Shown here: positions 2,702 through 64,000 of the stretch, one piece after another
Numbering within the stretch: position 1 is the stretch's first letter
Layout: every line of letters begins with the position of its first letter
NCBI RefSeq assembly: GCF_000002995.4
Contig: NW_025062476.1
Coordinates: 14,131,001-14,195,000 of the forward strand
Length of the DNA: 64,000 nt
Source: Brugia malayi
Lineage: Eukaryota > Nematoda > Chromadorea > Rhabditida > Onchocercidae
Direction: 5' to 3'
Notes under the pieces: generated by a model
Database searches by the model: none
Told to the model about the DNA's origin: nothing
What the model saw: only the letters and a program-made list of their open reading frames with translations
Translations under genes and position numbers: made by a program

Positions 2702-2902
2702 AAGGACAGTTGAATGAGAAGGAATGAAAAAGCAGTCCTTTTGAGAATAATGGGAAAGAAGTAGGAGTGGAAGAGGTTTAATTGAGAAGCTCTTATTTTG
2801 AGCTATCGAAACGAACACAGACCACCACCAGAAAAGCAGTAGTGAAAATGATAGCGCCACTACTGCTACTCTTCTACCGCCATGCAATTTTATCTTCCTC
2901 AT
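2639..2902 (-). CDS. Short signal-peptide-like ORF crossing the duplication edge (doubtful)
   Basis: Minus-strand frame of 87 codons. It begins with a basic stretch followed by a strongly hydrophobic run (VAVVALSFSLLLFWWWSVFV), which resembles a signal peptide or a membrane anchor. The first ~67 residues are identical in the second duplication copy (10336-10578). The C-terminal tails differ because the frame runs across the duplication breakpoint. There is no recognised family. It may be a first exon whose partners were lost, or chance. I would not count it as a gene without transcript support. Confidence 0.15.
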   Translation of the reverse strand: MRKIKLHGGRRVAVVALSFSLLLFWWWSVFVSIAQNKSFSIKPLPLLLLSHYSQKDCFFIPSHSTVLVYLYLCDFLLFYIFQPCKTI

Positions 2903-3324
2903 CAGTAATTGAGCAAACAGTTTCAGCTAAAGATAAAAGTAGCAAGCAGTGCAGCAATTGCTTTTCGGACATGGCAATAATATTGAAATCAGCTTGCTTA
3001 TATAATAATATGATTAGCAATAATAATAATAATAATAACGATAATGATAATAATATAACCTGAACTCGATGACATTATAGAACGAACGGCAGAAGTGGAA
3101 TAGTGCTGAGTGATTGTGATACGATGTTTGGAGCGTAGATAGACGGATAATAAATTTTGAAAAGTATTCTGCGATAATGAAATAAATTCTTTTCCTTTTG
3201 ATCATTTTAATTATGAAATGAATGTGATTGCCACAAATAATTTAGCACATTGAAAGAAGCGCCCTTTCAGCTGTCACATAAAAATGACTGTCAAATTGAA
3301 ATGTACGAGATTTCATGTGAACAT

Positions 3325-3344
3325 CAGAGAGAGAGAGAGAGAGA
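3325..3344. repeat. GA dinucleotide microsatellite, duplication copy 1
   Basis: A run of about ten GA units. The allelic position in copy 2 (about 11001-11040) has roughly twice as many. This is the main length difference between the two copies of segmental duplication A. Confidence 0.9.
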
Positions 3345-3584
3345 CTAAAATGACAGAGCAGCAAGGATGCACTGCACGAATGTGATGTATCGTACGCCCT
3401 GCATCTGCAAATTATTGGTGTTAGCAATTAACCGAGGCGGTAAGGGATGGGAGGGAATATGCGCAATAGGACACTTATGGTCAATTGAAGAAGAAAGTGA
3501 AGAGTGGAGAAGGAGATCTGAATAAATTATCAATGATCGTCTTGGTTAATTCACTGATTCACTCTTCAGGTCCGTTAGTAACTC

Positions 3585-3689
3585 ACTCTGTTACAGAGTA
3601 AGGAGTAAGGGAAGCGATAGATTCAAGTTGATCCTTCCGCTGAGTTAATTCGGGTTGTGAGGGTGCCCGTGGGAGAGTAGAATCAACTT
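3585..3689 (+). ncRNA. Candidate structured RNA inside duplication A (speculative)
   Basis: A small perfect hairpin (ACTCTG, TTA loop, CAGAGT at 3585-3599) is followed by an 8-bp stem, AAGTTGAT at 3625-3632 with ATCAACTT at 3682-3689. The stem encloses a locally GC-richer loop with an internal GGGTGCCC. The same sequence is present unchanged in copy 2. It matches no tRNA, spliced-leader or miRNA that I recognise. This is a weak hint of a folded RNA, not a call of one. Confidence 0.15.
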
Positions 3690-5728
3690 AGACTTTAGGT
3701 AAATGTTCCAAAGTGAAAATTTTATATAATTTGTCAGAAAAAAGAAGGAAGAAGGATAGTTGGTGATATGACTGCAATCAGTAAAGCAACGAGAAGGAAC
3801 TTTTCGGCTCGGTCTTTTTCGTCTCCCAGTGATTGGACCAAGAGAGATCTAACATTCTTAATGTAATAAATAATAAATATTCATTACATTATAACGCCCT
3901 GCCATACCTTTCTTCCCTGAGCATACAAATGGATTATCAATTGTGAAAGAAGGGAGGAACCGATTATCTGAATAAAATCGTAAAGCTCTCTTTAATTAGT
4001 CATATCATAACATATCATCTCTTATTAAAATTCCTATTAAATGCTTATTATTGTAGATGAATGAATGAATATCGAAAAATACGCAAATATTATTCGAAAA
4101 TTTTTTATAAAGAAAATATTAGATGGGAAAAAATGGAAAATATTCTGTCTTATCCGTTTGAGCCGCGGTAAATTTTAATTAAATGTACGCAAAATACTCC
4201 GTTTTTCTTATTTCTCCTTACCTCATTGACCTCCTCCTCATATATCTCGACGAGACTCATAAGTTAGTAAACAAATAAATTCAAAAAGAAATAATTCACT
4301 AGAAATGAAATTGTACATTGTTAGTGATACTACAATCGACCGACCGCACATCGTTTCCTTTGCAGACTTCACTTCTTCCTGTTATCGTTTTATAAGAAAT
4401 AATTGAGACGACAAAATGGAAGAATTAAAAAGATATTATAGATGCGTGGAATAATTTGATTCACAAAGAATCTATGAAATTTACTCACACAGAATTAGCG
4501 AAAAGTTACTCGGTGATATGATGCAAAATGTATCAAATTTATGCTCCTGCCAACTGATCACGGGCATATGACAGGTGTTGATTAATTGTTATGAAGTGCC
4601 GAACAATAAAATGTTATCGTCTTGAAATATTCTATATTAATTCGAACTTGCTAAAAAGCCAATTAAAAAGTGTAAAAATTTAAAGCATAAAATTTATTGC
4701 AATGTAGTATATCATAGTTGAAAAATGTGATCATTTATGCAAGAAGAGAAATCGACAAAATTCCCTAATATCCTGAATCATTTTTACCTTTTCACTGTAT
4801 TGCCGCTGATCTAGAAAAATTGATCTCGTTGACGGGTCACAGAAAATGAATCATTTTCACATCCTATTTACTTACTGCAAATGAAGCAAGCAGCGAGAGC
4901 ATTTTTTTTTTTTTTTGCTTTCACCGCATTTAAGACAGTTTTCTCGAATAATAATCTGATAGGTCATTTCTTGTTGAAATGTTGCACACATTATGAAATG
5001 AATCAAAAAATGCCCTGTTCTGGTCATTGTGCTGGTAATATTGTCAAGACCAATTAAATAATGATGACAAGCCACTTTCTTCATTTCCATCTAAAAGTGA
5101 CCCCTCATGATGAGAAATCTATAATATGGCAATGAAATCATCGTAAAGGATTACCCTGTTTAGCCTTGCGGAAAGAAACCGGTAAGGAAGGGCGGTGTTG
5201 CAATGTGCTGATTAATAAAAGTATGTGTATCATTTAATTTTATGATAAATTCGACATTTAATTTCTATAAATTTCTGAAAAGTCCTGGATCTATACGATT
5301 GGCTTACCTACAATTACAATTCACCTTGTTATCTTTAAGTGAATATTTCGCTACAGAATTTTTCATTTTATCTCATTTCTAAAATTGCAAAACGTTAATG
5401 TCATTTGCAATGGTTTAATTATTTACTTCTGAAATTATTCTCTGAAAGAACTCGAAAGGCGTTTTGCATGAATAAGAATTAATTCATGTGATCGGTATCA
5501 AAGCTTTCAAGTGAAAAATTAATGGATGAGTTCTTATCTAATTTTCAATGCAAATTTCGCAGCATTGAAAAAAATGTCGTGACCTCGCCTAAGTGTTGGT
5601 TAAGCAGCATGCTGAATCATACAAGATACTCGAAAACTAGTTTCCGGAACTTCCTAACATAACCTTTATTGGAGATATACCAATAAACACGTAACAGTAC
5701 AAATTTATATTAAAGATCAAAAATATGG

Positions 5729-8071
5729 AGCAGTTCCTTTCAAACAGGAAAATGACTGATTTATTCATTCACCAAAACCAACAATTACAGCTGGTTGGAC
5801 ATGTTGTTTCCGTTCACTGAATAGGTGTTTGAAACACTGAACTGCGGCGTACCGGAAATCTCTTTGACGATATAAAAATAACACGACCAAGTTGAAGGAA
5901 TTCAATAGGCGCAAATATACACAGCACATCACAATGATTTGCGATGTTATAGAAGAATCCATCACGTAAATACATTCCACCGTTGACGGCACAACGACAA
6001 GAACTGCAAGCTAATGGAATATTACCTGTAAAACTCACTATTTAATATTTAAGCAGTCCGACCGAGCCTATCCCAAGGCTATTTGGTCACTTTGGTACTG
6101 AATTCATAAATCAAACTTATGTTTTAGAGTGCAACGGAGCATCACCGTTTCGAAAGAATTTAGCTTTCTGACCACAAAATCTGGGAGGAAGAACATACAA
6201 AATGTAAAACAGCAAGAGATCAATGCTGTTTGAGTGTATCGCTTTTGATTTTTCAGGAAATGTGATAAGTCGCGGTTATGCGAGTGACTTGAAAGGAACT
6301 GTGCGCCGAACTTCCTGAAAGGATATGATAATGATATGATTAAAGTTTCATTCATATTTTGGGTTTGACTTTGTTAATGAATTGTCACCTGCCGTAAATG
6401 ACGTAAAAAAGTGATAATTAAACAAAAAGAGTATATTAGTTCTTTTTTTCTATCGCTATGTGCTCGTTTATGATAATTTTATTTTCATAATCTTATTAAA
6501 AAATTTTATTTTTTTTTGGCAAATGACATATTGCTTTCAATTTTCCATATTGTCTGACAATAAGCAGTTACGTATATTACATTCCTGTTTTAGGATATTG
6601 ATGGCATTTTTAAAATTAGAATGATTCTGATAAATGTTATCTTTGATTAGATGATTAGTAATAAATATTTAAAAGCATACTTTCTCAGCACGACAACTAC
6701 GACGACCATAAAAATAACACTCAGCAATGAAGCAACAGAGGTCAGTACTAGCAGTGCCTCATAAAAATGAGTTAAATATACCTCTTGCACTCTGCAAGAA
6801 ATATTGCATACATTTTGAAATTAAAAAATTGTTATCTATTTTGAAAACTGTCTACTTATAGTGTCCACAAAAGGTAGATTTTTTCCTTAGAATTTATTAT
6901 TGTAGTTGTAATAATGTTTTAAAATATTAATTAGCAAAAGGTCTTGAAAATTGCCTGATTACGGTGCTTGTGATTGAAATTTTTTCCTTGGAATTTATTA
7001 CTCGTAGTGTTCAAAGTAATTTACTTATTATTACTTACACACAAAACTTAGATATAAGCCGAATTGGTTCAATTAAACTTGCAATGACAGCAGCAGTTAC
7101 CACAGTGATGGTAATCACATATTGTGCGGTAATTAACGAATAACTTATTCGTGTGCTGTGAGCATAGTAATATATTGGGAATGCCACAACACAAAACCTT
7201 TCCAAGCTGTTCGTTAACAAACTTAATCCGTTCAGAAAATGTGATGTGAAAAAAAGTACGGATATCTGAAAATTCTTAACATTTACTTTCTTTTATTCTT
7301 CGTAACTTATTGTTGTAACTGTAAAAATTTCATAGAAGGACGTAATTTCCGGAATTCCTTTAAAAAGAAAAAAAAAAACAAACGCTCAGCACACATTCAT
7401 GATGACTAATGAGTTTTTCATCAGCGGAATAGATTAATCGTTTCATCCCTAGTAATATCACGCTAATTCCGGTAAATCCATTATTCAAGAACACAACAGC
7501 GATAACCACATAAGTTTTCCTGAAATACTCGAAATAATGCTTCCATCTGTTGTTATGCAATCCAGGTGTGATTGAGATAAATCGGTTGACCTGAGTGCTT
7601 TACGAATTATCACAAGCAGAAAGGCCGGAATGTTGATCAGTATAAGCATTGTACCGACAACGAAATAGCCATATGTGCGTAGAATATAGGTGATATTTGG
7701 TAGCATTTACTCTTCTTTTAATCTTCACTCTTCACAACGGTGTGACACTTTCACTTTGTCTGCAACAGATCAATTGAAGTGGAAAAGTTTGGTAAAATTG
7801 GTAACCTTAGATTAAATGGGGTTACATCAACAGAAACATTCACTGTTTCACTCTTTCGATGACACTGCAAAATATTAGGACTAAAAACGATAGTTAGGGA
7901 AGGTCGCTATTGTCTGACACTGCTCAAAAGTATGTAACATTTGGCTTGCAATAAATGAGAAATTTGAAATTACTTTCGCATATGATGAAATGAAACTCAG
8001 AATAAATTCTTACATGCAATTTCACTTTAAACTGAACCTTTCGTGTTCGTTTTGCACTTTCAAAATTCAAA
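5729..8071. repeat. Segmental duplication of a receptor gene, copy 1
   Basis: The block is repeated in the same orientation at 28372-30690. Outside one replaced patch (about 7230-7367 here, about 29873-29990 in the other copy) I counted only about four substitutions in roughly 2.2 kb. The block contains the whole receptor gene plus about 360 bp upstream of its ATG. Confidence 0.95.
5765..7706 (-). CDS. Seven-transmembrane receptor, nematode chemoreceptor-like (copy 1)
   Basis: Six exons by hand: 7591-7706, 7384-7546, 7039-7265, 6681-6791, 6146-6314 and 5765-6010. All phases agree and give 343 residues. Seven hydrophobic segments are visible: TM1 in exon 1 after an N-glycosylation site (NIT), TM2 in exon 2, TM3 at the exon 2/3 junction, TM4 in exon 3, TM5 in exon 4, TM6 in exon 5, TM7 in exon 6. 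TM3 ends in LERFCVVAFPIYYY, a DRY-like motif in the style of Srsx receptors. TM7 has LNSFNL and then YRQRDFRYA. The role would be ligand detection at the plasma membrane with G-protein coupling, inferred from family style. The exon 5/6 junction is the least certain, because two acceptors 9 bp apart are possible. It is nearly identical to the gene at 28408-30325 apart from TM3. Confidence 0.82.
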
Positions 8072-10377: not shown

Positions 10378-10998
10378 AAGGACAGTTGAATGAGAAGGAA
10401 TGAAAAAGCAGTCCTTTTGAGAATAATGGGAAAGAAGTAGGAGTGGAAGAGGTTTAATTGAGAAGCTCTTATTTTGAGCTATCGAAACGAACACAGACCA
10501 CCACCAGAAAAGCAGTAGTGAAAATGATAGCGCCACTACTGCTACTCTTCTACCGCCATGCAATTTTATCTTCCTCATCAGTAATTGAGCAAACAGTTTC
10601 AGCTAAAGATAAAAGTAGCAAGCAGTGCAGCAATTGCTTTTCGGACATGGCAATAATATTGAAATCAGCTTGCTTATATAATAATATGATTAGCAATAAT
10701 AATAATAATAATAACGATAATGATAATAATATAACCTGAACTCGATGACATTATAGAACGAACGGCAGAAGTGGAATAGTGCTGAGTGATTGTGATACGA
10801 TGTTTGGAGCGTAGATAGACGGATAATAAATTTTGAAAAGTATTCTGTGATAATGAAATAAATTCTTTTCCTTTTGATCATTTTAATTATGAAATGAATG
10901 TGATTGCCACAAATAATTTAGCACATTGAAAGAAGCGCTCTTTCAGCTGTCACATAAAAATGACTGTCAAATTGAAATGTACGAGATTTCATGTGAAC

Positions 10999-11042
<44 letters not shown>

Positions 11043-13142
11043 AAAATGACAGAGCAGCAAGGATGCACTGCACGAATGTGATGTATCGTACGCCCTGCAT
11101 CTGCAAATTATTGGTGTTAGCAATTAACCGAGGCGGTAAGGGATGGGAGGGAATATGCGCAATAGGACACTTATGGTCAATTGAAGAAGAAAGTGAAGAG
11201 TGGAGAAGGAGATCTGGATAAATTATCAATGATCGTCTTGGTTAATTCACTGATTCACTCTTCAGGTCCGTTAGTAACTCACTCTGTTACAGAGTAAGGA
11301 GTAAGGGAAGCGATAGATTCAAGTTGATCCTTCCGCTGAGTTAATTCGGGTTGTGAGGGTGCCCGTGGGAGAGTAGAATCAACTTAGACTTTAGGTAAAT
11401 GTTCCAAAGTGAAAATTTTATATAATTTGTCAGAAAAAAGAAGGAAGAAGGATAGTTGGTGATATGACTGCAATCAGTAAAGCAACGAGAAGGAACTTTT
11501 CGGCTCGGTCTTTTTCGTCTCCCAGTGATTGGACCAAGAGAGATCTAACATTCTTAATGTAATAAATAATAAATATTCATTACATTATAACGCCCTGCCA
11601 TACCTTTCTTCCCTGAGCATACAAATGGATTATCAATTGTGAAAGAAGGGAGGAACCGATTATCTGAATAAAATCGTAAAGCTCTCTTTAATTAGTCATA
11701 TCATAACATATCATCTCTTATTAAAATTCCTATTAAATGCTTATTATTGTAGATGAATGAATGAATATCGAAAAATACGCAAATATTATTCGAAAATTTT
11801 TTATAAAGAAAATATTAGATGGGAAAAAATGGAAAATATTCTGTCTTATCCGTTTGAGCCGCGGTAAATTTTAATTAAATGTACGCAAAATACTCCGTTT
11901 TTCTTATTTCTCCTTACCTCATTGACCTCCTCCTCATATATCTCGACGAGACTCATAAGTTAGTAAACAAATAAATTCAAAAAGAAATAATTCACTAGAA
12001 ATGAAATTGTACATTGTTAGTGATACTACAATCGACCGACCGCACATCGTTTCCTTTGCAGACTTCACTTCTTCCTGTTATCGTTTTATAAGAAATAATT
12101 GAGACGACAAAATGGAAGAATTAAAAAGATATTATAGATGCGTGGAATAATTTGATTCACAAAGAATCTATGAAATTTACTCACACAGAATTAGCGAAAA
12201 GTTACTCGGTGATATGATGCAAAATGTATCAAATTTATGCTCCTGCCAACTGATCACGGGCATATGACAGGTGTTGATTAATTGTTATGAAGTGCCGAAC
12301 AATAAAATGTTATCGTCTTGAAATATTCTATATTAATTCGAACTTGCTAAAAAGCCAATTAAAAAGTGTAAAAATTTAAAGCATAAAATTTATTGCAATG
12401 TAGTATATCATAGTTGAAAAATGTGATCATTTATGCAAGAAGAGAAATCGACAAAATTCCCTAATATCCTGAATCATTTTTACCTTTTCACTGTATTGCC
12501 GCTGATCTAGAAAAATTGATCTCGTTGACGGGTCACAGAAAATGAATCATTTTCACATCCTATTTACTTACTGCAAATGAAGCAAGCAGCGAGAGCATTT
12601 TTTTTTTTTTTGCTTTCACCGCATTTAAGACAGTTTTCTCGAATAATAATCTGATAGGTCATTTCTTGTTGAAATGTTGCACACATTATGAAATGAATCA
12701 AAAAATGCCCTGTTCTGGTCATTGTGCTGGTAATATTGTCAAGACCAATTAAATAATGATGACAAGCCACTTTCTTCATTTCCATCTAAAAGTGACCCCT
12801 CATGATGAGAAATCTATAATATGGCAATGAAATCATCGTAAAGGATTACCCTGTTTAGCCTTGCGGAAAGAAACCGGTAAGGAAGGGCGGTGTTGCAATG
12901 TGCTGATTAATAAAAGTATGTGTATCATTTAATTTTATGATAAATTCGACATTTAATTTCTATAAATTTCTGAAAAGTCCTGGATCTATACGATTGGCTT
13001 ACCTACAATTACAATTCACCTTGTTATCTTTAAGTGAATATTTCGCTACAGAATTTTTCATTTTATCTCATTTCTAAAATTGCAAAACGTTAATGTCATT
13101 TGCAATGGTTTAATTATTTACTTCTGAAATTATTCTCTGAAA
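10378..13142. repeat. Segmental duplication A, copy 2
   Basis: Direct repeat of 2702-5447, offset 7676 bp at its left end and 7695 bp at its right end. It carries the expanded GA tract (about 11001-11040). Near-perfect identity, with both edges abrupt, points to a recent event or ongoing homogenisation. Confidence 0.95.
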
Positions 13143-17100: not shown

Positions 17101-18173
17101 TAAATTCCATAAATTCTTGTGAAAATTTTCACTTTTTAAAATTAACTCATCCCATGTTGTTAAATTACACATTTGCATTCGCTCATTTATGGCATTCTCG
17201 AACTTTTATATTGCAATTCAATTTAAATAATATCAATTTCAGTTATTAAATAAAACATTGCAAGCTTCTTTCAGTTCTGTCTGAGTGCTTCTCGTTTCTA
17301 ACGTCACTTAAATCCGTATTCATATTACGACGCCGCTCTAACGCTGCGACCTCAACAAAGTGAAACAGATTGTTTAATACGTGGAAAATGTTACAGATTG
17401 GAGAAATGAATGCTACTGGTTACGCAGTACTAAGCAAAAGACAGCTAAGACTCATTTATGGTCAGCGATCACCGTATTACCATCCAGTTGCGCTGAAGAG
17501 ACTGTCGAAGTTGCTCGATCAAAATGACGGAATACAGAAATCGCTTGAAAGTGAACTGAAGAAATTAGCAAAATCTGAAAAATTTGGCTTACAAAAAGAA
17601 GAATTACACCGAAGACAAAAGCGCTTCGGTATTTCCCTTTCACCCTTCCTGCTGTCACCATTTATACTAGCATCGGGAGCTCTGTCACAGCCAGTCCTTC
17701 TTTCTCCAGTAATCTTGTCACCTATAGTCTTGAGTCCAGCGATTCTCGGACCCTTCATCCTAAGCCCTTGGATATTCAACCCAGTGATCTTATCACCTCG
17801 AATTCTTGCTCCTTTCATCCTCAGTCCTTTCATTTTCTCTCCTCTAGTGCTATCACCCGTTGCACTACATCCATTCATCCTTTCCCCCGGCATATTCAAT
17901 CCGCTAATTCTATCACCGCTGTCTTTATCACCCTTTATACTTTCACCTCAGGTGGCAACGCCACTGATACTATCACCGATGATACTAAACCCGCTGATAC
18001 TGAATCCAATGGCTTTGTCACCACTCGTTTTCAGTCCCTTCATTCTATCACCACTTGTGTATTCACCTCAATACCTGTTCGCTCTCGTCTTCAGCCCTTA
18101 TCTGCTCTCGCCAATAATTGAAAGCAAATTGATCAATAGCACGGTTATTATGTCACCAAGTATTTTAAGTTAG
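14186..18173 (+). CDS. mlt-10: Moulting cycle MLT-10-like secreted protein
   Basis: Eight exons by hand: 14186-14406, 14636 to about 14817, 14964-15285, 15486-15582, 15663-15896, 16329-16508, 16884-17045 and 17397-18173. The total is about 724 residues with consistent phases; the exon 2 donor is uncertain by a few codons. The N-terminus is a signal peptide (MYHTIILLLVLLHKSMS). The body carries family signatures such as SITKHAKCVVDLLMLEK, ADIRHLVKQMKEREELL, ISRDNRMQLAASLSKLLRDA, LLSPSILSLHNDGGSMERKL, GIDGQPLYFTKQNVSELYGK and NATGYAVLSKRQLRLIYG. The last ~180 residues are a hydrophobic array of LSPxIL-type repeats. A furin-like site RRQKR (17609-17623) sits directly before the repeats. In C. 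elegans mlt-10 is needed for moulting. Whether this is the true orthologue or one of several paralogues is unresolved. Confidence 0.92.
17628..18170 (+). repeat. Coding repeat: LSPxIL-type tandem motif
   Basis: Within the last exon of the moulting gene, short motifs of 5-9 residues built on [LF][SNA]P with aliphatic residues recur more than thirty times. At DNA level they share TCACC/AGTCC-type Ser-Pro codons, so the array can expand or contract in frame. It ends shortly before the stop codon. Confidence 0.9.
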
Positions 18174-28371: not shown

Positions 28372-30690
28372 AGCAGTTCCTTTCAAACAGGAAAATGACT
28401 GATTTATTCATTCACCAAAACCAACAATTACAGCTGGTTGGACATGTTGTTTCCGTTCACTGAATAGGTGTTTGAAACACTGAACTGCGGCGTACCGGAA
28501 ATCTCTTTGACGATATAAAAATAACACGACCAAGTTGAAGGAATTCAATAGGCGCAAATATACACAGCACATCACAATGATTTGCGATGTTATAGAAGAA
28601 TCCATCACGTAAATACATTCCACCGTTGACGGCACAACGACAAGAACTGCAAGCTAATGGAATATTACCTGTAAAACTCACTATTTAATATTTAAGCAGT
28701 CCGACCGAGCCTATCCCAAGGCTATTTGGTCACTTTGGTACTGAATTCATAAATCAAACTTATATTTTAGAGTGCAACGGAGCATCACCGTTTCGAAAGA
28801 ATTTAGCTTTCTGACCACAAAATCTGGGAGGAAGAACATACAAAATGTAAAACAGCAAGAGATCAATGCTGTTTGAGTGTATCGCTTTTGATTTTTCAGG
28901 AAATGTGATAAGTCGCGGTTATGCGAGTGACTTGAAAGGAACTGTGCGCCGAACTTCCTGAAAGGATATGATAATGATATGATTAAAGTTTCATTCATAT
29001 TTTGGGTTTGACTTTGTTAATGAATTGTCACCTGCCGTAAATGACGTAAAAAAGTGATAATTAAACAAAAAGAGTATATTAGTTCTTTTTTTCTATCGCT
29101 ATGTGCTCGTTTATGATAATTTTATTTTCATAATCTTATTAAAAAATTTTATTTTTTTTTGGCAAATGACATATTGCTTTCAATTTTCCATATTGTCTGA
29201 CAACAAGCAGTTACGTATATTACATTCCTGTTTTAGGATATTGATGGCATTTTTAAAATTAGAATGATTCTGATAAATGTTATCTTTGATTAGATGATTA
29301 GTAATAAATATTTAAAAGCATACTTTCTCAGCACGACAACTACGACGACCATAAAAATAACACTCAGCAATGAAGCAACAGAGGTCAGTACTAGCATTGC
29401 CTCATAAAAATGAGTTAAATATACCTCTTGCACTCTGCAAGAAATATTGCATACATTTTGAAATTAAAAAATTGTTATCTATTTTGAAAACTGTCTACTT
29501 ATAGTGTCCACAAAAGGTAGATTTTTTCCTTAGAATTTATTATTGTAGTTGCAATAATGTTTTAAAATATTAATTAGCAAAAGGTCTTGAAAATTGCCTG
29601 ATTACGGTGCTTGTGATTGAAATTTTTTCCTTGGAATTTATTACTCGTAGTGTTCAAAGTAATTTACTTATTATTACTTACACACAAAACTTAGATATAA
29701 GCCGAATTGGTTCAATTAAACTTGCAATGACAGCAGCAGTTACCACAGTGATGGTAATCACATATTGTGCGGTAATTAACGAATAACTTATTCGTGTGCT
29801 GTGAGCATAGTAATATATTGGGAATGCCACAACACAAAACCTTTCCAAGCTGTTCGTTAACAAACTTAATCCATCTAGACAAAGCACTGTTAGAAGAAGA
29901 ACGGGAATCTGAAACTTTTCAAGGTATTTGAATACTTTAATCTAATTTGGTAATATAGCCAGAGGAATAATCTAAAAAAAAAAAAAGAAAAAAAAAACAA
30001 ACGCTCAGCACACATTCATGATGACTAATGAGTTTTTCATCAGCGGAATAGATTAATCGTTTCATCCCTAGTAATATCACGCTAATTCCGGTAAATCCAT
30101 TATTCAAGAACACAACAGCGATAACCACATAAGTTTTCCTGAAATACTCGAAATAATGCTTCCATCTGTTGTTATGCAATCCAGGTGTGATTGAGATAAA
30201 TCGGTTGACCTGAGTGCTTTACGAATTATCACAAGCAGAAAGGCCGGAATGTTGATCAGTATAAGCATTGTACCGACAACGAAATAGCCATATGTGCGTA
30301 GAATATAGGTGATATTTGGTAGCATTTACTCTTCTTTTAATCTTCACTCTTCACAACGGTGTGACACTTTCACTTTGTCTGCAACAGATCAATTGAAGTG
30401 GAAAAGTTTGGTAAAATTGGTAACCTTAGATTAAATGGGGTTACATCAACAGAAACATTCACTGTTTCACTCTTTCGATGACACTGCAAAATATTAGGAC
30501 TAAAAACGATAGTTAGGGAAGGTCGCTATTGTCTGACACTGCTCAAAAGTATGTAACATTTGGCTTGCAATAAATGAGAAATTTGAAATTACTTTCGCAT
30601 ATGATGAAATGAAACTCAGAATAAATTCTTACATGCAATTTCACTTTAAACTGAACCTTTCGTGTTCGTTTTGCACTTTCAAAATTCAAA
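28372..30690. repeat. Segmental duplication of a receptor gene, copy 2
   Basis: Counterpart of 5729-8071, offset 22643 bp on the 3' side of the gene and 22619 bp on its 5' side. The offset changes across the replaced patch at about 29873-29990. Edges are abrupt, with no obvious terminal repeats or target-site duplication. Confidence 0.95.
28408..30325 (-). CDS. Seven-transmembrane receptor, nematode chemoreceptor-like (copy 2)
   Basis: Exons 30210-30325, 30003-30165, 29682-29908, 29324-29434, 28789-28957 and 28408-28653 give 343 residues, the same exon lengths as the 5765-7706 gene. All splice sites are intact. The only other coding change I found is Leu to Met in exon 4 (TM5). The start of exon 3 differs: IPVLLLTVLCLD replaces ISVLFFTSHFLN before the shared GLSLLTNSLERF. 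The preceding intron is also unrelated in sequence. It lies between the EAPP homologue and the zinc-finger gene, on the opposite strand to both. The likely role is membrane chemoreception, by resemblance to Srsx-like receptors. Confidence 0.82.
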
Positions 30691-31718: not shown

Positions 31719-32306
31719 CCTAAGAATAAATATTGGAAATAAGTCAACATATTTCCAATTGTCATTTAATTTACGTCACCAAAATTTAAAACTGAAACTT
31801 TTTTCAAAATGCAAATAATTCATTCAATATTTTACTTACCTTCAATAAACTATATTTTATTAAACAAAGAAGACAGGATTATTTAATACTGCACAACTGA
31901 TTAAATATTTCACCATACGATGACATTTAATCCCAGCTATTCATCAGTTCCCTTTATGCAAATGTTACTCCATTTTGTCAACCAAACTTCTAGAATTTGT
32001 TTCAAACATCAAACATTGCTTATGTTGAAATTCTTTCTGATAATAGCAGTGGATGTATGTCAAAAAGCAATAATTAGCAAATTTCAGGTGATGCTTCCAT
32101 CCGATGAAGTTCCCATCGGTGATACTATCAATAGATGTGAAGATGCTACTTTATTAAATGAACCCATTAAATGCATCGAAAATGATTAGAATCTTATTCC
32201 TCACGTCGTATTACTGAAATGATGGAACAATATCCTTCCTAAGTATCAGATTTACGTACGCGCTATTGTAACACTTCCTTCCGGATTCAAAACAGCATTC
32301 ATAAAC
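31719..32306. repeat. Segmental duplication B, copy 1
   Basis: A 588-bp block repeated in direct orientation at 37228-37815 (offset 5509). I found only about four mismatches, clustered near the right end plus one near the left. Each copy holds the same intact 89-codon frame. Confidence 0.95.
31920..32189 (+). CDS. Small hypothetical protein in duplication B, copy 1
   Basis: The frame is 89 codons. If translation starts at the internal Met near 32022, a 55-residue protein with a short hydrophobic start (MLKFFLIIAVDVCQ) results. The tail includes LPSDEVPIGDTINRCEDATL. An in-frame AAATTTCAG precedes the VMLPSDEV segment, so part of this could be intron with an exon starting there. There is no known family. 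The copy at 37429-37698 encodes an identical protein. It lies 0.3 kb upstream of the zinc-finger gene on the same strand. Confidence 0.25.
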   Translation: MTFNPSYSSVPFMQMLLHFVNQTSRICFKHQTLLMLKFFLIIAVDVCQKAIISKFQVMLPSDEVPIGDTINRCEDATLLNEPIKCIEND

Positions 32307-37227: not shown

Positions 37228-37815
37228 CCTAAGAATAAATGTTGGAAATAAGTCAACATATTTCCAATTGTCATTTAATTTACGTCACCAAAATTTAAAA
37301 CTGAAACTTTTTTCAAAATGCAAATAATTCATTCAATATTTTACTTACCTTCAATAAACTATATTTTATTAAACAAAGAAGACAGGATTATTTAATACTG
37401 CACAACTGATTAAATATTTCACCATACGATGACATTTAATCCCAGCTATTCATCAGTTCCCTTTATGCAAATGTTACTCCATTTTGTCAACCAAACTTCT
37501 AGAATTTGTTTCAAACATCAAACATTGCTTATGTTGAAATTCTTTCTGATAATAGCAGTGGATGTATGTCAAAAAGCAATAATTAGCAAATTTCAGGTGA
37601 TGCTTCCATCCGATGAAGTTCCCATCGGTGATACTATCAATAGATGTGAAGATGCTACTTTATTAAATGAACCCATTAAATGCATCGAAAATGATTAGAA
37701 TCTTATTCATCAGGTCGTATTACTGAAATGATGGAACAATATCCTTCCTAAGTATCAGATTTACGTACGCGCTATTGTAACACTTCCTTCCGGATTCAAA
37801 AGAGCATTCATAAAC
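37228..37815. repeat. Segmental duplication B, copy 2
   Basis: Direct copy of 31719-32306. No zinc-finger gene follows here, so the duplication took only the sequence upstream of that gene. Confidence 0.95.
37429..37698 (+). CDS. Small hypothetical protein in duplication B, copy 2
   Basis: Identical in translation to the frame at 31920-32189 (89 codons, or 55 from the internal Met). As there is no downstream partner exon at this locus, it would have to be a self-contained gene or a passive duplicate. Not recognised. Confidence 0.2.
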   Translation: MTFNPSYSSVPFMQMLLHFVNQTSRICFKHQTLLMLKFFLIIAVDVCQKAIISKFQVMLPSDEVPIGDTINRCEDATLLNEPIKCIEND

Positions 37816-57200: not shown

Positions 57201-59785
57201 GATTATTTTATACGCATAGTGCGGGAACTGGTCACATACATTGTGGTCATTTGACATCTTAAATAATAAAAAAATGCTTAGGCTTAGGCTTAGGGTATAT
57301 TTAGGCTTAGGCCTAAGCATTATTTCAAATCTAAAAATTGATTTTGGTGAAAATTTTATAATTTGCAAGAGCTTTTGTATATTAAAGGGAGAAAAAATCT
57401 CTAGTTCTTTTCAATTTTGATTTTAATTAAGTGTTAAAACTATTAAAAAATATCAATTCGTTAAAAAAAAATTAGTTATTTTGAACTCAGTTATTTAATT
57501 TTATGCGTTGCATACGTAATAAGAGAATAAACTTTAATAACTAAGTTTTTTTTTTAATATTTGAGAGGTGAAATTAATAAGATTTTTAATTTGTCGTAGA
57601 TTTAATTCATTTTTGCAGCTAAAATTAGTTTTTGTTTGTTTTTAAAAAATATCAATTATTATTAAAAATATCAATTATTATTTTGAACTCAATTGTTAAA
57701 ATATCAATTAAAACTATTGAAACTATTAAAAAATATCAATTCATTAAAAAAAATTAGTTATTTTGAAGTGAATTGATTAAATTTATGCATTGCATGGGTA
57801 ACGGTCAGTTACGGTGTGGTCAATTGACAACATAAATAAGAAAATATACTTCAATAACTAAGCTTTTTTTAATATTTGAGAAACAAAATTAATAAGATTT
57901 TTAATTTGTCGTAGATTTAATTCATTTCTGCAGCTAAAATTAGTTTTTGTTTGTTTTTAAAAAATATCAATTATTATTAAAAATATCAATTAAAAAAAAA
58001 AATAAAAAAAAAAATATCAATTAAAAATTAAAAATATCAATTAAAATCACTTTTTTTTCTATAATTCCTAGTAATATCAAATTTTACTTTAATTAAATGT
58101 TAAAACTGTTAAAAAATATATATTAATTAAAAAAAGTTAGATATTTCGAGCTTAATTGATCAATTTATATGCATTGCATAGGTACTGGTCATTTACGGTT
58201 GCTCATTTGATCAGCATAAATAACTAAATAAACTTTAAAAATTAAGTTTCAATCAATATTCGACTAGCGAAATTGATTAAATTTTTAATTTATCACGGTT
58301 TTAATTCATCCTTACAATTCAAATTAATTTTTATTTCAAATTTAAATATCAAATTCTCTGAAAATTTAATGATTTATTAGAGTTTTGTATATTAAAAAGT
58401 AAAATGAATCCCTGTGTTGTCAAAATTCATTTTAATTAAATGTTAAAATATTATAAATATCAATTGTTTAAAAAAAAAATAGATAATTTGAGCTTAGTTG
58501 ATTAATTTATAAGCGTTCCATAGTACTGGTTATTTACGGTGTAGTCATTTGACCAACATTAATAATAAAATAAACTTTAATAATTAACTTTTAATCGATA
58601 TTTTATTAGCAAAATTAATTAAAATCTTTATTTGTCATGGGTTTATTTCATTCTTACAATTATAATTAATTTTTTTTCCAAATTTAAATACCATAATTTA
58701 TGAAAATTGTATAATTTTTGAAAGTTTTGTATATTAAACTATGAAATAAATGCCGGAATTGTCAAAATTTAATTTAATTAAATGTTAAAATATTTATAAA
58801 TATCAATTCTTTAAAAAAAAATAGATATTTTGAACTTAATTGATTAATTTATAAGCGTTGCATAGATACTGGTCACATACATTGTGGTCATTTGATCATA
58901 AATAATTAAATAAACTTTAAGAATTGAGTTTTGATTAAAGTTTCACTTGTGAAAATAATAAAATTTTTAATTAGTCATAGATCTAATTCATTTTTACAAT
59001 TAATGCTAATTTTAATTCAAGTTTAAAATTGATTTTTATGAAAATTCAATAATTTGTCAACTTAATTGATTTATTTGTGTGCATTGCATGGGTAACGGTC
59101 AGTTACGGTGTGGTCAATTGACAACATAAATAAGAAAATATACTTCAATAACTAAGCTTTTTTTAATATTTGAGAAACAAAATTAATAAGATTTTTAATT
59201 TGTCGTAGATTTAATTCATTTCTGCAGCTAAAATTAATTTTTGTTTGAAATTTTAAGATCGAATTTTATGAAAATTTTATGATTTGCAATGAATCAAAGC
59301 CTTTTTTGTATAATAGACTACGAAATAATTTCTAGTAATATCAAATTTTACTTTAATTAAATGTTAAAACTGTTAAAAAAATATATATTCATTAAAAAAA
59401 GTTAGATATTTCGAGCTTAATTGATTAATTTATTTGCATTGCATGGATACTGGTCACACACACCATGGTCATTTGACCAGCAAATATAATAAAATATACT
59501 TTAGAAATAAAGTTTCAATCAATATTTTATTAGCAAAAATAATTAAATTTTTAATTTTTCTCGATTTTATTTCATTCTTACAATTAAAATTAATTTATAT
59601 TTCAAATTTAAATAATACATTTACAAAAATCCCATAATTTATACGGGTATTTGCATACTATACTGGGTAAGAAGTTCTACTATTATCAAAATTTAATTTC
59701 AAAGGATGTTAAAAGTATTAAAAAATATCATTTAATAAAAAAAAAAATTGATTATTACATACGCATAGTGCGGGAACTGGTCACT
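54241..59785 (+). repeat. Diverged HhaI-like repeat units, second forward block
   Basis: The orientation is as in 44797-47870. It contains an almost exact copy of part of the first block (about 55279-55860 versus about 47059-47650). It is interrupted at about 56430-56870 by ~450 bp of AT-rich sequence lacking the unit landmarks. It ends abruptly at the homogeneous array. Confidence 0.85.
56430..56870. other. Non-repeat AT-rich interruption
   Basis: About 450 bp without the landmarks of the satellite unit, flanked on both sides by them. It shows no open frame of interest. It may be an insertion into the repeat block. Confidence 0.5.
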
Positions 59786-62700
59786 GAATTAAGTTCAAAA
59801 TATTGCTATTTTTAGCAGTTTTGGCACTTAATTAAAATAAAAATTAATAATTTAGAACCAATTTCCTTGTTTAATGAAAGAAAACTATTACAAATTTTAA
59901 AATTTTTAAAAAGTTCAAAATTTTAATTTTAAATTAAATTTAATTTTGAACCTTAAATTGAATTAAAACCATCATTAATTGAAAGTTCTATTAATTTCGG
60001 TGATCAATTTTTGAGCAAAACTTAATTTCAAAAGCGTATTTTAATATTTAAACTATAAAATGAACACACTATATATGACCCGCTCTGCTGCAATGCTTAC
60101 AACATAATGAATTAAGTTCAAAATATTGCTATTTTTAGCAGTTTTGGCAATTAATTAAAATAAAAATTAATAATTCAGAACCAATTTCCTTGTTTAATGA
60201 AAGAAAACTATTCAGATTTTAAAATTTTTAAAAAGTTCAAAATTTTAATTTTAAATTAAATTTAATTTTGAACCTTAAATTGAATTAAAACCATCATTAA
60301 TTGAAAGTTCTATTAATTTCGGTGATCAATTTTTGAGCAAAACTTAATTTCAAAAGCGTATTTTAATATTTAAACTATAAAATGAACACACTATATATGA
60401 CCCGCTCTGCTGCAATGCTTACAACATAATGAATTAAGTTCAAAATATTGCTATTTTTAGCAGTTTTGGCACTTAATTAAAATAAAAATTAATAATTTAG
60501 AACCAATTTCCTTGTTTAATGCAAGAAAACTATTACAAATTTTAAAATTTTTAAAAAATTCAATATTTAAATTTGAAATTAAATTTAATTTTCAACCTTA
60601 AATTGAATTAAAACCATCATTAATTGAAAGTTTTATTAATTTTGCCGGTGAAATATTGCGCCAAACTTAATTACAAAAGCGTATTTTAATATTTAAACTA
60701 TAAAATGAACACACTATATATGACCCGCTCTGCTGCAATGCTTACAACATAATGAATTAAGTTCAAAATATTGCTATTTTTAGCAGTTTTGGCACTTAAT
60801 TAAAATAAAAATTATTAATTTAGAACCAATTTCCTTGTTTAATGCAAGAAAACTATTACAAATTTTAAAATTTTTAAAAAATTCAATATTTAAATTTGAA
60901 ATTAAATTTTATTTTCAACCTTAAATTGAATTAAAACCATGATTAATTGAAAGTTTTATTAATTTTGCCGGTGAAATATTGCGCCAAACTTAATTACAAA
61001 AGCGTATTTTAATATTTAAACTATAAAACGAGCACACCGTATATGACCCGCTCTGCTGCAATGCTTACAACATAATGAATTAAGTTCAAAATATTGCTAT
61101 TTTTAGCAGTTTTGGCACTTAATTAAAATAAAAATTAATAATTCAGAACCAATTTCCTTGTTTAATGAAAGAAAACTATTACAAATTTTAAAATTTTTAA
61201 AAAATTCAATATTTAAATTTGAAATTAAATTTAATTTTGAACCTTAAATTGAATTAAAACCATGATTAATTGAAAGTTTTATTAATTTTGCCGGTGGAAT
61301 ATTGCACCAAACTTAATTACAAAAGCGTATTTTAATATTTAAACTATAAAATGAACACACTATATATGACCCGCTCTGCTGCAATGCATATAACATAATG
61401 AATTAAGTTCAAAATATTGCTATTTTTAGCAGTTTTGGCACTTAATTAAAATAAAAATTAATAATTTAGAACCAATTTCCTTGTTTAATGCACGAAAACT
61501 ATTACAAATTTTAAAATTTTTAAAAAATTCAATATTTAAATTTGAAATTAAATTTAATTTTGAACCTTAAATTGAATTAAAACCATCATTAATTGAAAGT
61601 TCTATTAATTTCGGTGATCAATTTTTGAGCAAAACTTAATTTCAAAAGCGTATTTTAATATTTAAACTATAAAATGAACACACTATATATGACCCGCTCT
61701 GCTGCAATGCTTACAACATAATGAATTAAGTTCAAAATATTGCTATTTTTAGCAGTTTTGGCACTTAATTAAAATAAAAATTATTAATTTAGAACCAATT
61801 TCCTTGTTTAATGCAAGAAAACTATTACAAATTTTAAAATTTTTAAAAAATTCAATATTTAAATTTGAAATTAAATTTAATTTTCAACCTTAAATTGAAT
61901 TAAAACCATCATTAATTGAAAGTTTTATTAATTTTGCCGGTGAAATATTGCGCCAAACTTAATTACAAAAGCGTATTTTAATATTTAAACTATAAAATGA
62001 ACACACTATATATGACCCGCTCTGCTGCAATGCTTACAACATAATGAATTAAGTTCAAAATATTGCTATTTTTAGCAGTTTTGGCACTTAATTAAAATAA
62101 AAATTATTAATTTAGAACCAATTTCCTTGTTTAATGCAAGAAAACTATTACAAATTTTAAAATTTTTAAAAAATTCAATATTTAAATTTGAAATTAAATT
62201 TAATTTTCAACCTTAAATTGAATTAAAACCATGATTAATTGAAAGTTTTATTAATTTTGCCGATGAAATATTGCGCCAAAACTTAATTACAAAAGCGTAT
62301 TTTAATATTTAAACTATAAAACGAGCACACCGTATATGACCCGCTCTGCTGCAATGCTTACAACATAATGAATTAAGTTCAAAATATTGCTATTTTTAGC
62401 AGTTTTGGCACTTAATTAAAATAAAAATTAATAATTTAGAACCAATTTCCTTGTTTAATGAAAGAAAACTATTACAAATTTTAAAATTTTTAAAAAATTC
62501 AATATTTAAATTTGAAATTAAATTTAATTTTGAACCTTAAATTGAATTAAAACCATGATTAATTGAAAGTTTTATTAATTTTGCCGATGAAATATTGCGC
62601 AAAACTTAATTACAAAAGCGTATTTTAATATTTAAACTATAAAATGAACACACTATATATGACCCGCTCTGCTGCAATGCATATAACATAATGAATTATG

Positions 62701-64000
62701 TTCAAAATATTGCTATTTTTAGCAGTTTTGGCACTTAATTAAAATAAAAATTAATAATTTAGAACCAATTTCCTTGTTTAATGCAAGAAAACTATTACAA
62801 ATTTTAAAATTTTTAAAAAATTCAATATTTAAATTTGAAATTAAATTTAATTTTCAACCTTAAATTGAATTAAAACCATGATTAATTGAAAGTTTTATTA
62901 ATTTTGCCGGTGAAATATTGCGCCAAACTTAATTACAAAAGCGTATTTTAATATTTAAACTATAAAATGAGCACACCATATATGACCCGCTCTGCTGCAA
63001 TGCATATAACATAATGAATTAAGTTCAAAATATTGCTATTTTTAGCAGTTTTGGCACTTAATTAAAATAAAAATTAATAATTTAGAACCAATTTCCTTGT
63101 TTAATGCAAGAAAACTATTACAAATTTTAAAATTTTTAAAAAATTCAATATTTAAATTTGAAATTAAATTTAATTTTCAACCTTAAATTGAATTAAAACC
63201 ATCATTAATTGAAAGTTTTATTAATTTTGCCGGTGAAATATTGCACCAAACTTAATTACAAAAGCGTATTTTAATATTTAAACTATAAAATGAACACACT
63301 ATATATGACCCGCTCTGCTGCAATGCATATAACATAATGAATTAAGTTCAAAATATTGCTATTTTTAGCAGTTTTGGCACTTAATTAAAATAAAAATTAA
63401 TAATTTAGAACCAATTTCCTTGTTTAATGAAAGAAAACTATTACAAATTTTAAAATTTTTAAAAAATTCAATATTTAAATTTGAAATTAAATTTAATTTT
63501 GAACCTTAAATTGAATTAAAACCATGATTAATTGAAAGTTTATTAATTTTGCGATGAAATTTTTCAGCAAAACTTAATTACAAAAGCGTATTTTAATATT
63601 TAAACTATAAAATGAACACACTATATATGACCCGCTCTGCTGCAATGCATATAACATAATGAATTAAGTTCAAAATATTGCTATTTTTAGCAGTTTTGGC
63701 ACTTAATTAAAATAAAAATTAATAATTTAGAACCAATTTCCTTGTTTAATGAAAGAAAACTATTACAAATTTTAAAATTTTTAAAAAATTCAAAATTTAA
63801 ATTTGAAATTAAATTTAATTTTGAACCTTAAATTGAATTAAAACCATCATTAATTGAAAGTTCTATTAATTTCGGTGATCAATTTTGAGCAAAACTTAAT
63901 TTCAAAAGCGTATTTTAATATTTAAACTATAAAATGAGCACACCATATATGACCCGCTCTGCTGCAATGCATATAACATAATGAATTAAGTTCAAAATAT
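59786..64000 (-). repeat. HhaI-type 323-bp satellite array (homogeneous)
   Basis: Thirteen complete head-to-tail monomers start at 59786, 60109, 60431, 60754, 61077, 61400, 61723, 62046, 62370, 62693, 63016, 63339 and 63661. A fourteenth begins at 63983 and is cut by the window end. Lengths are 322-324 bp. Monomers are highly similar but mosaic for a short variable patch: GCGC-containing types, GCAC types, and a TGATCAATTTTTGAGC type. The stretch at 62597-62619 matches the Brugia HhaI primer region as I remember it, and the 322-bp length also fits that satellite. The orientation is opposite to the neighbouring diverged block. Confidence 0.93.

What the first reader, a model, noticed from the sequence alone, without database searches (positions are those of the whole stretch)
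7230..7383. Mosaic receptor pair: only the TM3 half-exon and its intron were swapped
The receptor genes at 5765-7706 and 28408-30325 lie in blocks with only about four substitutions in roughly 2.2 kb. Yet one patch (about 7230-7367 versus 29873-29990) is unrelated in sequence. It covers nearly all of intron 2 plus the first 36 bases of exon 3. Both versions keep a working acceptor, the same exon length and frame, and encode different outer TM3 halves (7 of 12 residues differ). TM3 is a main ligand-contact helix in class A receptors. A targeted gene-conversion tract from a third paralogue, changing specificity while leaving the rest untouched, is a plausible reading.
Basis: partly seen in the sequence, partly recalled or inferred. 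Interest (0 to 1): 0.8.

Follow-up and report, generated by a model that had tools for sequence, protein, structure and literature searches.

The report
Twin worm receptors, one ancient patch
Two almost identical smell/taste-type receptor genes of the filarial worm Brugia malayi differ only in one short stretch of a presumed ligand-contact helix and the intron beside it; [quoted passage not shown]

Summary
Genes A (5765-7706, -) and B (28408-30325, -) lie in blocks with four substitutions in 2.2 kb, except a 132/109-bp patch (most of intron 2 plus the first 36 bases of exon 3) where 7 of 12 residues differ. Both genes are intact. The genome is Brugia malayi.

The reading 'duplicate, then recent swap from a third paralogue' is only partly supported. 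No donor was found: each patch matches only itself in this assembly. The patches look older than their surroundings: two B. pahangi proteins carry the B version (12/12), and the W. bancrofti orthologue carries an A-like version (8/12 to A, 3/12 to B), while A and B flanks are 0.18% apart. A second receptor group 9 Mb away shows the same design: rest of exon 3 189/191 identical, outer TM3 27/36, breakpoint within 2 nt of the same place, patch types shared across species.

Best reading: two long-lived TM3 versions kept apart while gene conversion (or a recent duplication from two alleles) made everything else alike, as in primate red/green opsins. Shown: the mosaic, and both patch versions in relatives at protein level. 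Inferred: the age of the flanks (no relative's DNA could be read), conversion as agent, selection, ligand specificity.

The parts
5729..8068 (-). Block A: near-identical unit holding receptor gene A, with about 360 bp upstream of its start codon
   Evidence: Matches 28372-30687 with 4 substitutions outside the patch; flanks unrelated
5765..7706 (-). Receptor gene A (protein identical to P0001; the Bm9109 record P0003 has the same patch): exons 7706-7591, 7519-7384, 7265-7039, 6791-6681, 6314-6199, 6003-5765; 314 aa
   Evidence: Open six-exon model equal to P0001; P0003 = Bm9109 on a 14,214,749-bp contig
7230..7361 (-). Patch A: intron 2 beyond its first bases plus the first 36 bases of exon 3 (ISVLFFTSHFLN)
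   Evidence: Alignment; only itself in the genome; A-like version in W. bancrofti P0004, 8/12
7266..7383 (-). Intron 2 of gene A (118 bp, GTTTGT..TTTCAG)
   Evidence: not alignable with intron 2 of B once T-run and acceptor are trimmed
28372..30687 (-). Block B: near-identical unit holding receptor gene B
28408..30325 (-). Receptor gene B: exons 30325-30210, 30138-30003, 29908-29682, 29434-29324, 28957-28842, 28646-28408; 314 aa
   Evidence: Open six-exon model
29873..29981 (-). Patch B: intron 2 beyond its first bases plus the first 36 bases of exon 3 (IPVLLLTVLCLD)
   Evidence: Alignment; only itself in the genome; identical 12/12 in B. pahangi P0002 and P0020
29909..30002 (-). Intron 2 of gene B (94 bp, GTTTGT..TTTCAG)

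Best explanation
A and B are a linked pair of filarial chemoreceptor-type, class-A-like GPCR genes. The intron-2/outer-TM3 patch exists in two old versions that were already distinct before B. malayi and B. pahangi (B version) and before Brugia and Wuchereria (A version) separated. The rest of the two genes has been made nearly identical much more recently by non-reciprocal exchange between the copies (gene conversion), with the patch left unconverted. Most likely the patch is retained because the two versions give the two receptors different ligand preference while they share the same signalling body, the arrangement known from primate red/green opsins. Shown: the mosaic, intactness of both genes, presence of each version in another species inside a closely related body, a second receptor group with the same breakpoint. 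Inferred: that the flanks are younger than the species splits, that the homogenising agent was gene conversion between the copies (rather than a recent duplication that captured two alleles), selection as the reason for retention, and a role in ligand choice.
For: B patch 12/12 in B. pahangi P0002 and P0020 (contigs of 10.7 Mb and 8.4 kb, so presumably two assemblies); W. bancrofti P0004 patch 8/12 to A and 3/12 to B, agreeing with A at 5 and with B at 0 of the 7 sites where A and B differ. Outside the patch A and B differ at 1 of 302 residues and 4 of about 2.2 kb, against 14 of the 220 comparable residues to P0004 (its last exon is read in another frame and was left out) and against Bm-Bp orthologous DNA that PMC7330237 (whole text read) describes as typically >90% identical with more variation at chromosome ends. 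Patch-free tree of 43 rows: A, B, P0002 and P0004 one clade (100/99); holding B's body with the clade that its patch resembles is rejected (p-AU 3e-9). Second case: E (4.80/4.807 Mb) and F (4.827 Mb): 9 of 36 patch bases differ, 2 of the other 191 of exon 3; last patch difference at base 34, in A/B at base 36 (Fisher p 1e-6 on the first 156 bases). E and F patches differ 0-2/12 between orthologues of three species but 5-6/12 within each species.
Against: No DNA of B. pahangi or W. bancrofti could be read. Outside the patch A-B (1 of 302 residues) and B-P0002 (1 of 262 besides a splice-model difference, exon 4 missing from that record) cannot be ranked. In the E/F group likewise: outside the patch B. 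malayi E and F differ by 1 of 63, but B. malayi-B. pahangi orthologues by 1 and 3 of 63; only against Wuchereria (6-10 of 63, versus 1-5 between E and F within species) does the contrast show. The species-versus-type site count is weak (Fisher p 0.05 without, 0.08 with the last exon-3 residue). B. malayi and B. pahangi can cross (PMC8575316, passages), so introgression could mimic a shared old patch. Protein records are clustered at 90%, so whether either relative holds both versions is unknown. The block ends are abrupt without decayed homology outside, which a recent duplication explains more simply than conversion between old paralogues. The patch is not the most variable stretch of the family (mean pairwise identity 0.47; several other windows are lower). 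Confidence lowered from a first 0.58 after the recount.
Confidence: 0.52

Rival explanations
1. Captured alleles: one ancestral locus carried both patch versions as a long-lived balanced polymorphism; ordinary recombination kept the flanks alike, and a recent 2.3-kb duplication in B. malayi put one allele at a second site.
For: Abrupt block ends without decayed homology outside; A-B flank difference of 4 in 2.2 kb is of the order of allelic differences (inference, no diversity figure was looked up); the B. pahangi records found show only B and the W. bancrofti record only A, as single-allele sampling would give.
Against: The E/F group shows the same breakpoint between separate loci; protein clustering at 90% hides second copies, so the 'one version per species' pattern is not secure.
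Confidence: 0.24
2. One reading: whole-gene duplication, then a short conversion tract from a third paralogue replaced the patch in one copy.
For: B's patch resembles the VLC-type patch of a sister clade (Litomosoides P0012 8/12, Cercopithifilaria P0017 6/12: ranks 1 and 2 of 41; the clade's four members rank 1, 2, 5, 18, rank-sum p 0.004) while its body does not join that clade; short tracts between paralogues do occur in this family.
Against: No donor found in the genome; the B version is already in B. pahangi, so the swap, if any, is older than the flank identity suggests and would still need later homogenisation that spared the patch.
Confidence: 0.14
3. Neutral escape: no selection; intron 2 and the fast-changing start of exon 3 had diverged too far to pair, so conversion tracts simply stop there. 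It shares the age order of the best explanation and differs only on cause.
For: Both cases stop at the edge of the conserved GxSLLxNSxER block (G97 invariant in the 45-row alignment), as homology-limited tracts would; in E/F exon 2 is also unconverted.
Against: In A/B the other four introns are identical but for two substitutions (6561 and 6909), although their interiors give no BLAST match in the C, D and E loci. If they had once diverged as far between A and B, heterology did not stop exchange there.
Confidence: 0.25
4. Assembly chimera or collapsed haplotypes.
For: Repeat-rich window about 20 kb from a contig end with several recent duplications.
Against: Other records carry each version: A in P0001 (another source, organism not stated) and A-like in W. 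bancrofti, B in two B. pahangi records; flanks of the two blocks are unrelated.
Confidence: 0.04

Closest known systems
Primate L/M (red/green) opsin genes: conversion with a protected divergence peak
   Same: Linked class A GPCR pair about 24 kb apart (here 22.6 kb); surroundings homogenised; a short specificity segment where orthologues are closer than paralogues (PMC3924837, passages read; PMC3213168, abstract and outline read)
   Different: In opsins the peak is a few exonic substitutions and introns are homogenised; here most of an intron plus part of an exon is strongly diverged, and the ligands are unknown
Mammalian TLR1/TLR6
   Same: Paralogues closer in one part, orthologues closer in the other, by independent conversions in several species (PMC2077338, abstract and outline read)
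   Different: Not a GPCR; the diverged part is a long N-terminal region, not a 12-residue helix half
CCR2/CCR5 conversion in mammals
   Same: Class A GPCRs shaped by conversion (PMC8877049, search listing and start of abstract only)
   Different: No comparable trans-species part-exon known to me (recalled)
Filarial srsx-like chemoreceptors
   Same: Filarial radiations of srx, srab, srbc and srsx receptors (PMC7302863, passages read); 2 of 45 family members match Pfam Srsx
   Different: P0001 (= A) itself matches no Pfam family at E 0.1

Membership tests
Conversion-homogenised paralogues with protected specificity segment (L/M opsin type) | Linked duplicates on one chromosome | tested here: met
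   22.6 kb apart on contig C136
Conversion-homogenised paralogues with protected specificity segment (L/M opsin type) | Outside the segment paralogues closer than orthologues | tested here: inconclusive
   Met against W. bancrofti (1/302 vs 14/220 residues); undecided at protein level against B. pahangi (1/262; E/F group 1/63 vs 1-3/63); DNA not available
Conversion-homogenised paralogues with protected specificity segment (L/M opsin type) | Inside the segment orthologues closer than paralogues | tested here: met
   A-Wb 8/12 and B-Bp 12/12 identical, A-B 5/12; E/F group likewise
Conversion-homogenised paralogues with protected specificity segment (L/M opsin type) | Segment determines what the receptor detects | not testable with these tools
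   No ligand known; position only
Conversion-homogenised paralogues with protected specificity segment (L/M opsin type) | Conversion shown by population or recombination tests | not tested
   One genome only; no GENECONV-type test was run
Class A (rhodopsin-like) GPCR | Seven helices, Cys at the start of TM3, E/DR at its inner end | tested here: met
   Helix order fits seven segments in a low-confidence model (pLDDT 60.5); C81 and R107 invariant in the 45-row alignment and aligned to FFAR3 8j20, E 0.0049; the ten best Foldseek hits are class A receptors, 3 at E<=0.001
Class A (rhodopsin-like) GPCR | Match to the family's public profile | tested here: inconclusive
   0 Pfam families for P0001 at E 0.1; of the 45 members scanned 2 match 7tm_1 (best 3e-4) and 2 Srsx (best 4e-8); many relatives bear the UniRef name 'G-protein coupled receptors family 1 profile'

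The most novel reading that the evidence does not exclude
In this filarial receptor family the intron-2/outer-TM3 segment behaves as a specificity cassette of its own: gene bodies are repeatedly copied between paralogues within a species, in both cases seen stopping at the codon before Gly97, while the cassette passes down through species unmixed, giving pairs of receptors with one signalling body and two ligand-contact helices.
Probability: 0.28. Interest if true: 0.72.

Novelty: new member of a known kind. Interest (0 to 1): 0.5.

Why it matters
If the age order holds, the patch marks, by evolution alone, the stretch in which two otherwise identical parasite receptors must differ. That makes a clean natural comparison for finding the ligands of filarial chemoreceptors and gives a nematode counterpart to the opsin textbook case. 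It also warns that gene trees of these receptors can mix two histories in one exon.

Tried and rejected
Donor search: both patches alone against the genome, E up to 10, found only themselves (that search skips simple repeats and common words). The protein found 63 exon-level matches, 62 of them on C136, which I read as ten loci besides A and B (4.80, 4.807, 4.827, 11.32, 11.34, 11.35, 11.37, 12.21, 12.22 and 12.46 Mb); at 12.46 Mb and on C139 only later exons matched, so no patch was seen there; the others have other patches. Intron 2 kinship: of the 15 pairs only E-F and D-F clearly exceed shuffles; A-E, C-E and D-E are at p 0.01-0.04, uncorrected, so introns cannot name a donor. Patch as the most variable part of the family: rejected (52 of 71 rows). 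A first 326-aa splice model for the last two exons was wrong and was replaced by the 314-aa model of P0001. AlphaFold model of P0001 too weak to place side chains in a pocket (pLDDT 60.5); Foldseek superpositions are poor (rmsd about 6-11). Rfam: 0 matches. Which patch is ancestral at this locus: undecided; the sister clade with VLC-type patches (support 79/86, not starred; a one-residue loop deletion is shared by A, B, P0004, P0012, P0014 and P0017 but also by P0056) hints at B, W. bancrofti at A. Print searches (best 15-20 rows of each seen) listed no paper whose title or shown abstract describes this mosaic, and the main text of PMC7302863 has 0 occurrences of 'Bm9109', 'conversion' and 'tandem'. 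The count ran one residue past exon 3 and was redone.

Full report
WHAT IS THERE. The window is 14,131,001-14,195,000 of a 14,214,749-bp contig of an 86.8-Mb genome. A database record on a contig of that length, P0003, is Bm9109 of Brugia malayi. The two receptor genes sit on the minus strand in blocks 5729-8068 and 28372-30687. Outside the patch they differ by four substitutions (6121, 6561, 6754, 6909). Inside, 7230-7361 and 29873-29981 differ in length and sequence: the introns align no better than chance once T-run and acceptor are trimmed (12 of 500 shuffles with the acceptor left in), and 14 of 36 exon bases differ, against 0 of the remaining 191 of exon 3 (Fisher p 5e-13). Six exons with GT..AG introns give 314 aa in both; A equals P0001. 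Flanks of the two blocks are unrelated as far as BLAST shows.

WHERE THE PATCH LIES. It encodes residues 85-96, just after the conserved cysteine C81 at the start of TM3 and before the invariant Gly97. A family profile aligns this helix with that of free fatty acid receptor 3 (8j20, E 0.0049), cysteine and ER motif in register apart from one gap. Counting from either landmark the patch is about 3.28-3.40 in the usual class A numbering (the numbering, and the statement that 3.32-3.37 often touch ligand, are recalled). The predicted model agrees on a helix from 85 on but is of low confidence.

FAMILY. Protein search of the genome gives 63 exon-level matches, 62 of them on this contig, mostly as pairs: 4.80/4.807 plus 4.827 Mb (E1, E2, F), 11.32/11.35 (C), 12.21/12.22 (D), 14.138/14.160 (A, B), a distant pair near 11.34/11.37 and a last exon at 12.46. 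C and D pairs are 99.4% alike over 5.8-6.0 kb. No member other than A and B whose exon 3 was seen has either patch, and each patch alone finds only itself.

AGE OF THE PATCH. Among 69 related proteins, W. bancrofti P0004 has the same kind of body (14 of 220 residues different from A) with an A-like patch: 8 of 12 to A, 3 of 12 to B; at the 7 sites separating A and B it agrees with A at 5, with B at none and with neither at 2. B. pahangi P0002 and P0020 have B's patch 12 of 12; P0002, which lacks exon 4, differs from B outside it by 1 of 262 residues besides a splice-model difference. In the four other Brugia-Wuchereria pairs of neighbours in the tree the patch agrees at 10-11 of 12 (patch labels), so 3 of 12 is far outside what orthology gives; A's own 8 of 12 is also somewhat low. 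A tree without patch columns puts A, B, P0002 and P0004 together (100/99). Holding B with the clade that its patch most resembles (Litomosoides P0012 8/12; Cercopithifilaria P0017, P0014 6/12) is rejected, p-AU 3e-9. So B's body belongs with A while its patch does not.

AGE OF THE REST. A and B differ by 0.18% in 2.2 kb including four introns. The B. pahangi genome paper gives orthologous regions as typically above 90% identical to B. malayi, with more variation at chromosome ends (PMC7330237, whole text); family members elsewhere differ in some residues of most exons between the two species (exon by exon, not summed). The flanks therefore seem to coalesce later than the patch. The weak points: I could not read B. 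pahangi DNA; at protein level A-B (1 of 302) and B-P0002 (1 of 262) cannot be ranked; and the two species can cross (PMC8575316, passages), so introgression is not excluded.

A SECOND CASE. E and F at 4.80-4.83 Mb are patchworks: upstream and exon 1 shared in turn between F and the E copies, exon 2 and intron 2 diverged, then from the codon before Gly97 to the exon end near identity (189 of 191), with the outer TM3 at 27 of 36. The last patch difference is at exon base 34, in A/B at base 36. The E patch and the F patch each differ by 0-2 of 12 among B. malayi, B. pahangi and W. bancrofti, while E and F differ by 5-6 of 12 within each species. Outside the patch E and F differ within species by 1 (malayi), 3 (pahangi) and 4-5 (bancrofti) of 63, Brugia-Wuchereria orthologues by 6-10, but malayi-pahangi orthologues only by 1 and 3, so the concerted pattern shows against Wuchereria only. 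Sites that separate E from F in all three species: five in the patch and the last residue of the exon; sites that separate Wuchereria from Brugia in both genes: one in the patch, four outside (Fisher p 0.05 without and 0.08 with that last residue). This second case was found after the fact; it supports but does not prove a rule.

HOW IT MOST LIKELY WORKS. Copies exchange sequence within a species, which keeps bodies alike; the outer TM3 with its intron stays in two lineages. For red and green opsins, about 24 kb apart, the same signature is read as selection against conversion at the spectral sites (PMC3924837, passages; PMC3213168, abstract). That neutral heterology alone stops the tracts is not excluded; against it, in A/B the four other introns, whose interiors have no BLAST match in the C, D and E loci, differ by only two substitutions. 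A recent duplication taking a second allele is the main structural rival, favoured by the sharp block ends.

VERDICT. Observation right; interpretation half right; the order of events is probably the other way round. It is an opsin-like case in a parasite chemoreceptor pair, new as an instance, not as a kind.

Noticed in passing
2702-5447 and 10378-13142: A second recent direct duplication, 2.7 kb at 99.1% identity, one copy on each side of block A.
   Followed up: no
31719-32306 and 37228-37815: 588-bp direct duplication at 99.3%, holding the same 94-aa stop-to-stop frame, beyond block B.
   Followed up: no
L019 (4.800-4.810 Mb) and L055 (4.822-4.832 Mb): Three receptor copies E1, E2, F form an exon-by-exon mosaic; E2 shares upstream and exon 1 with F but exons 2-3 with E1.
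   Followed up: partly
L017/L018 and L020/L021: Receptor pairs C (direct) and D (inverted) are 99.4% identical over 5.8-6.0 kb; D keeps an 89% tail next to the 99.4% tract, as a conversion edge might leave.
   Followed up: partly
59785-64000, continuing to L059:1889: 323-bp AT-rich tandem repeat, 13 copies at 96%; preceded by less uniform 343-bp arrays from 44796. No TTAGGC telomere repeat in the last 9.8 kb of the contig (L060).
   Followed up: partly
17364-18173: 269-aa open frame rich in short proline-containing repeats (LSPxILxP-like) after an RRQKR stretch; not identified.
   Followed up: no
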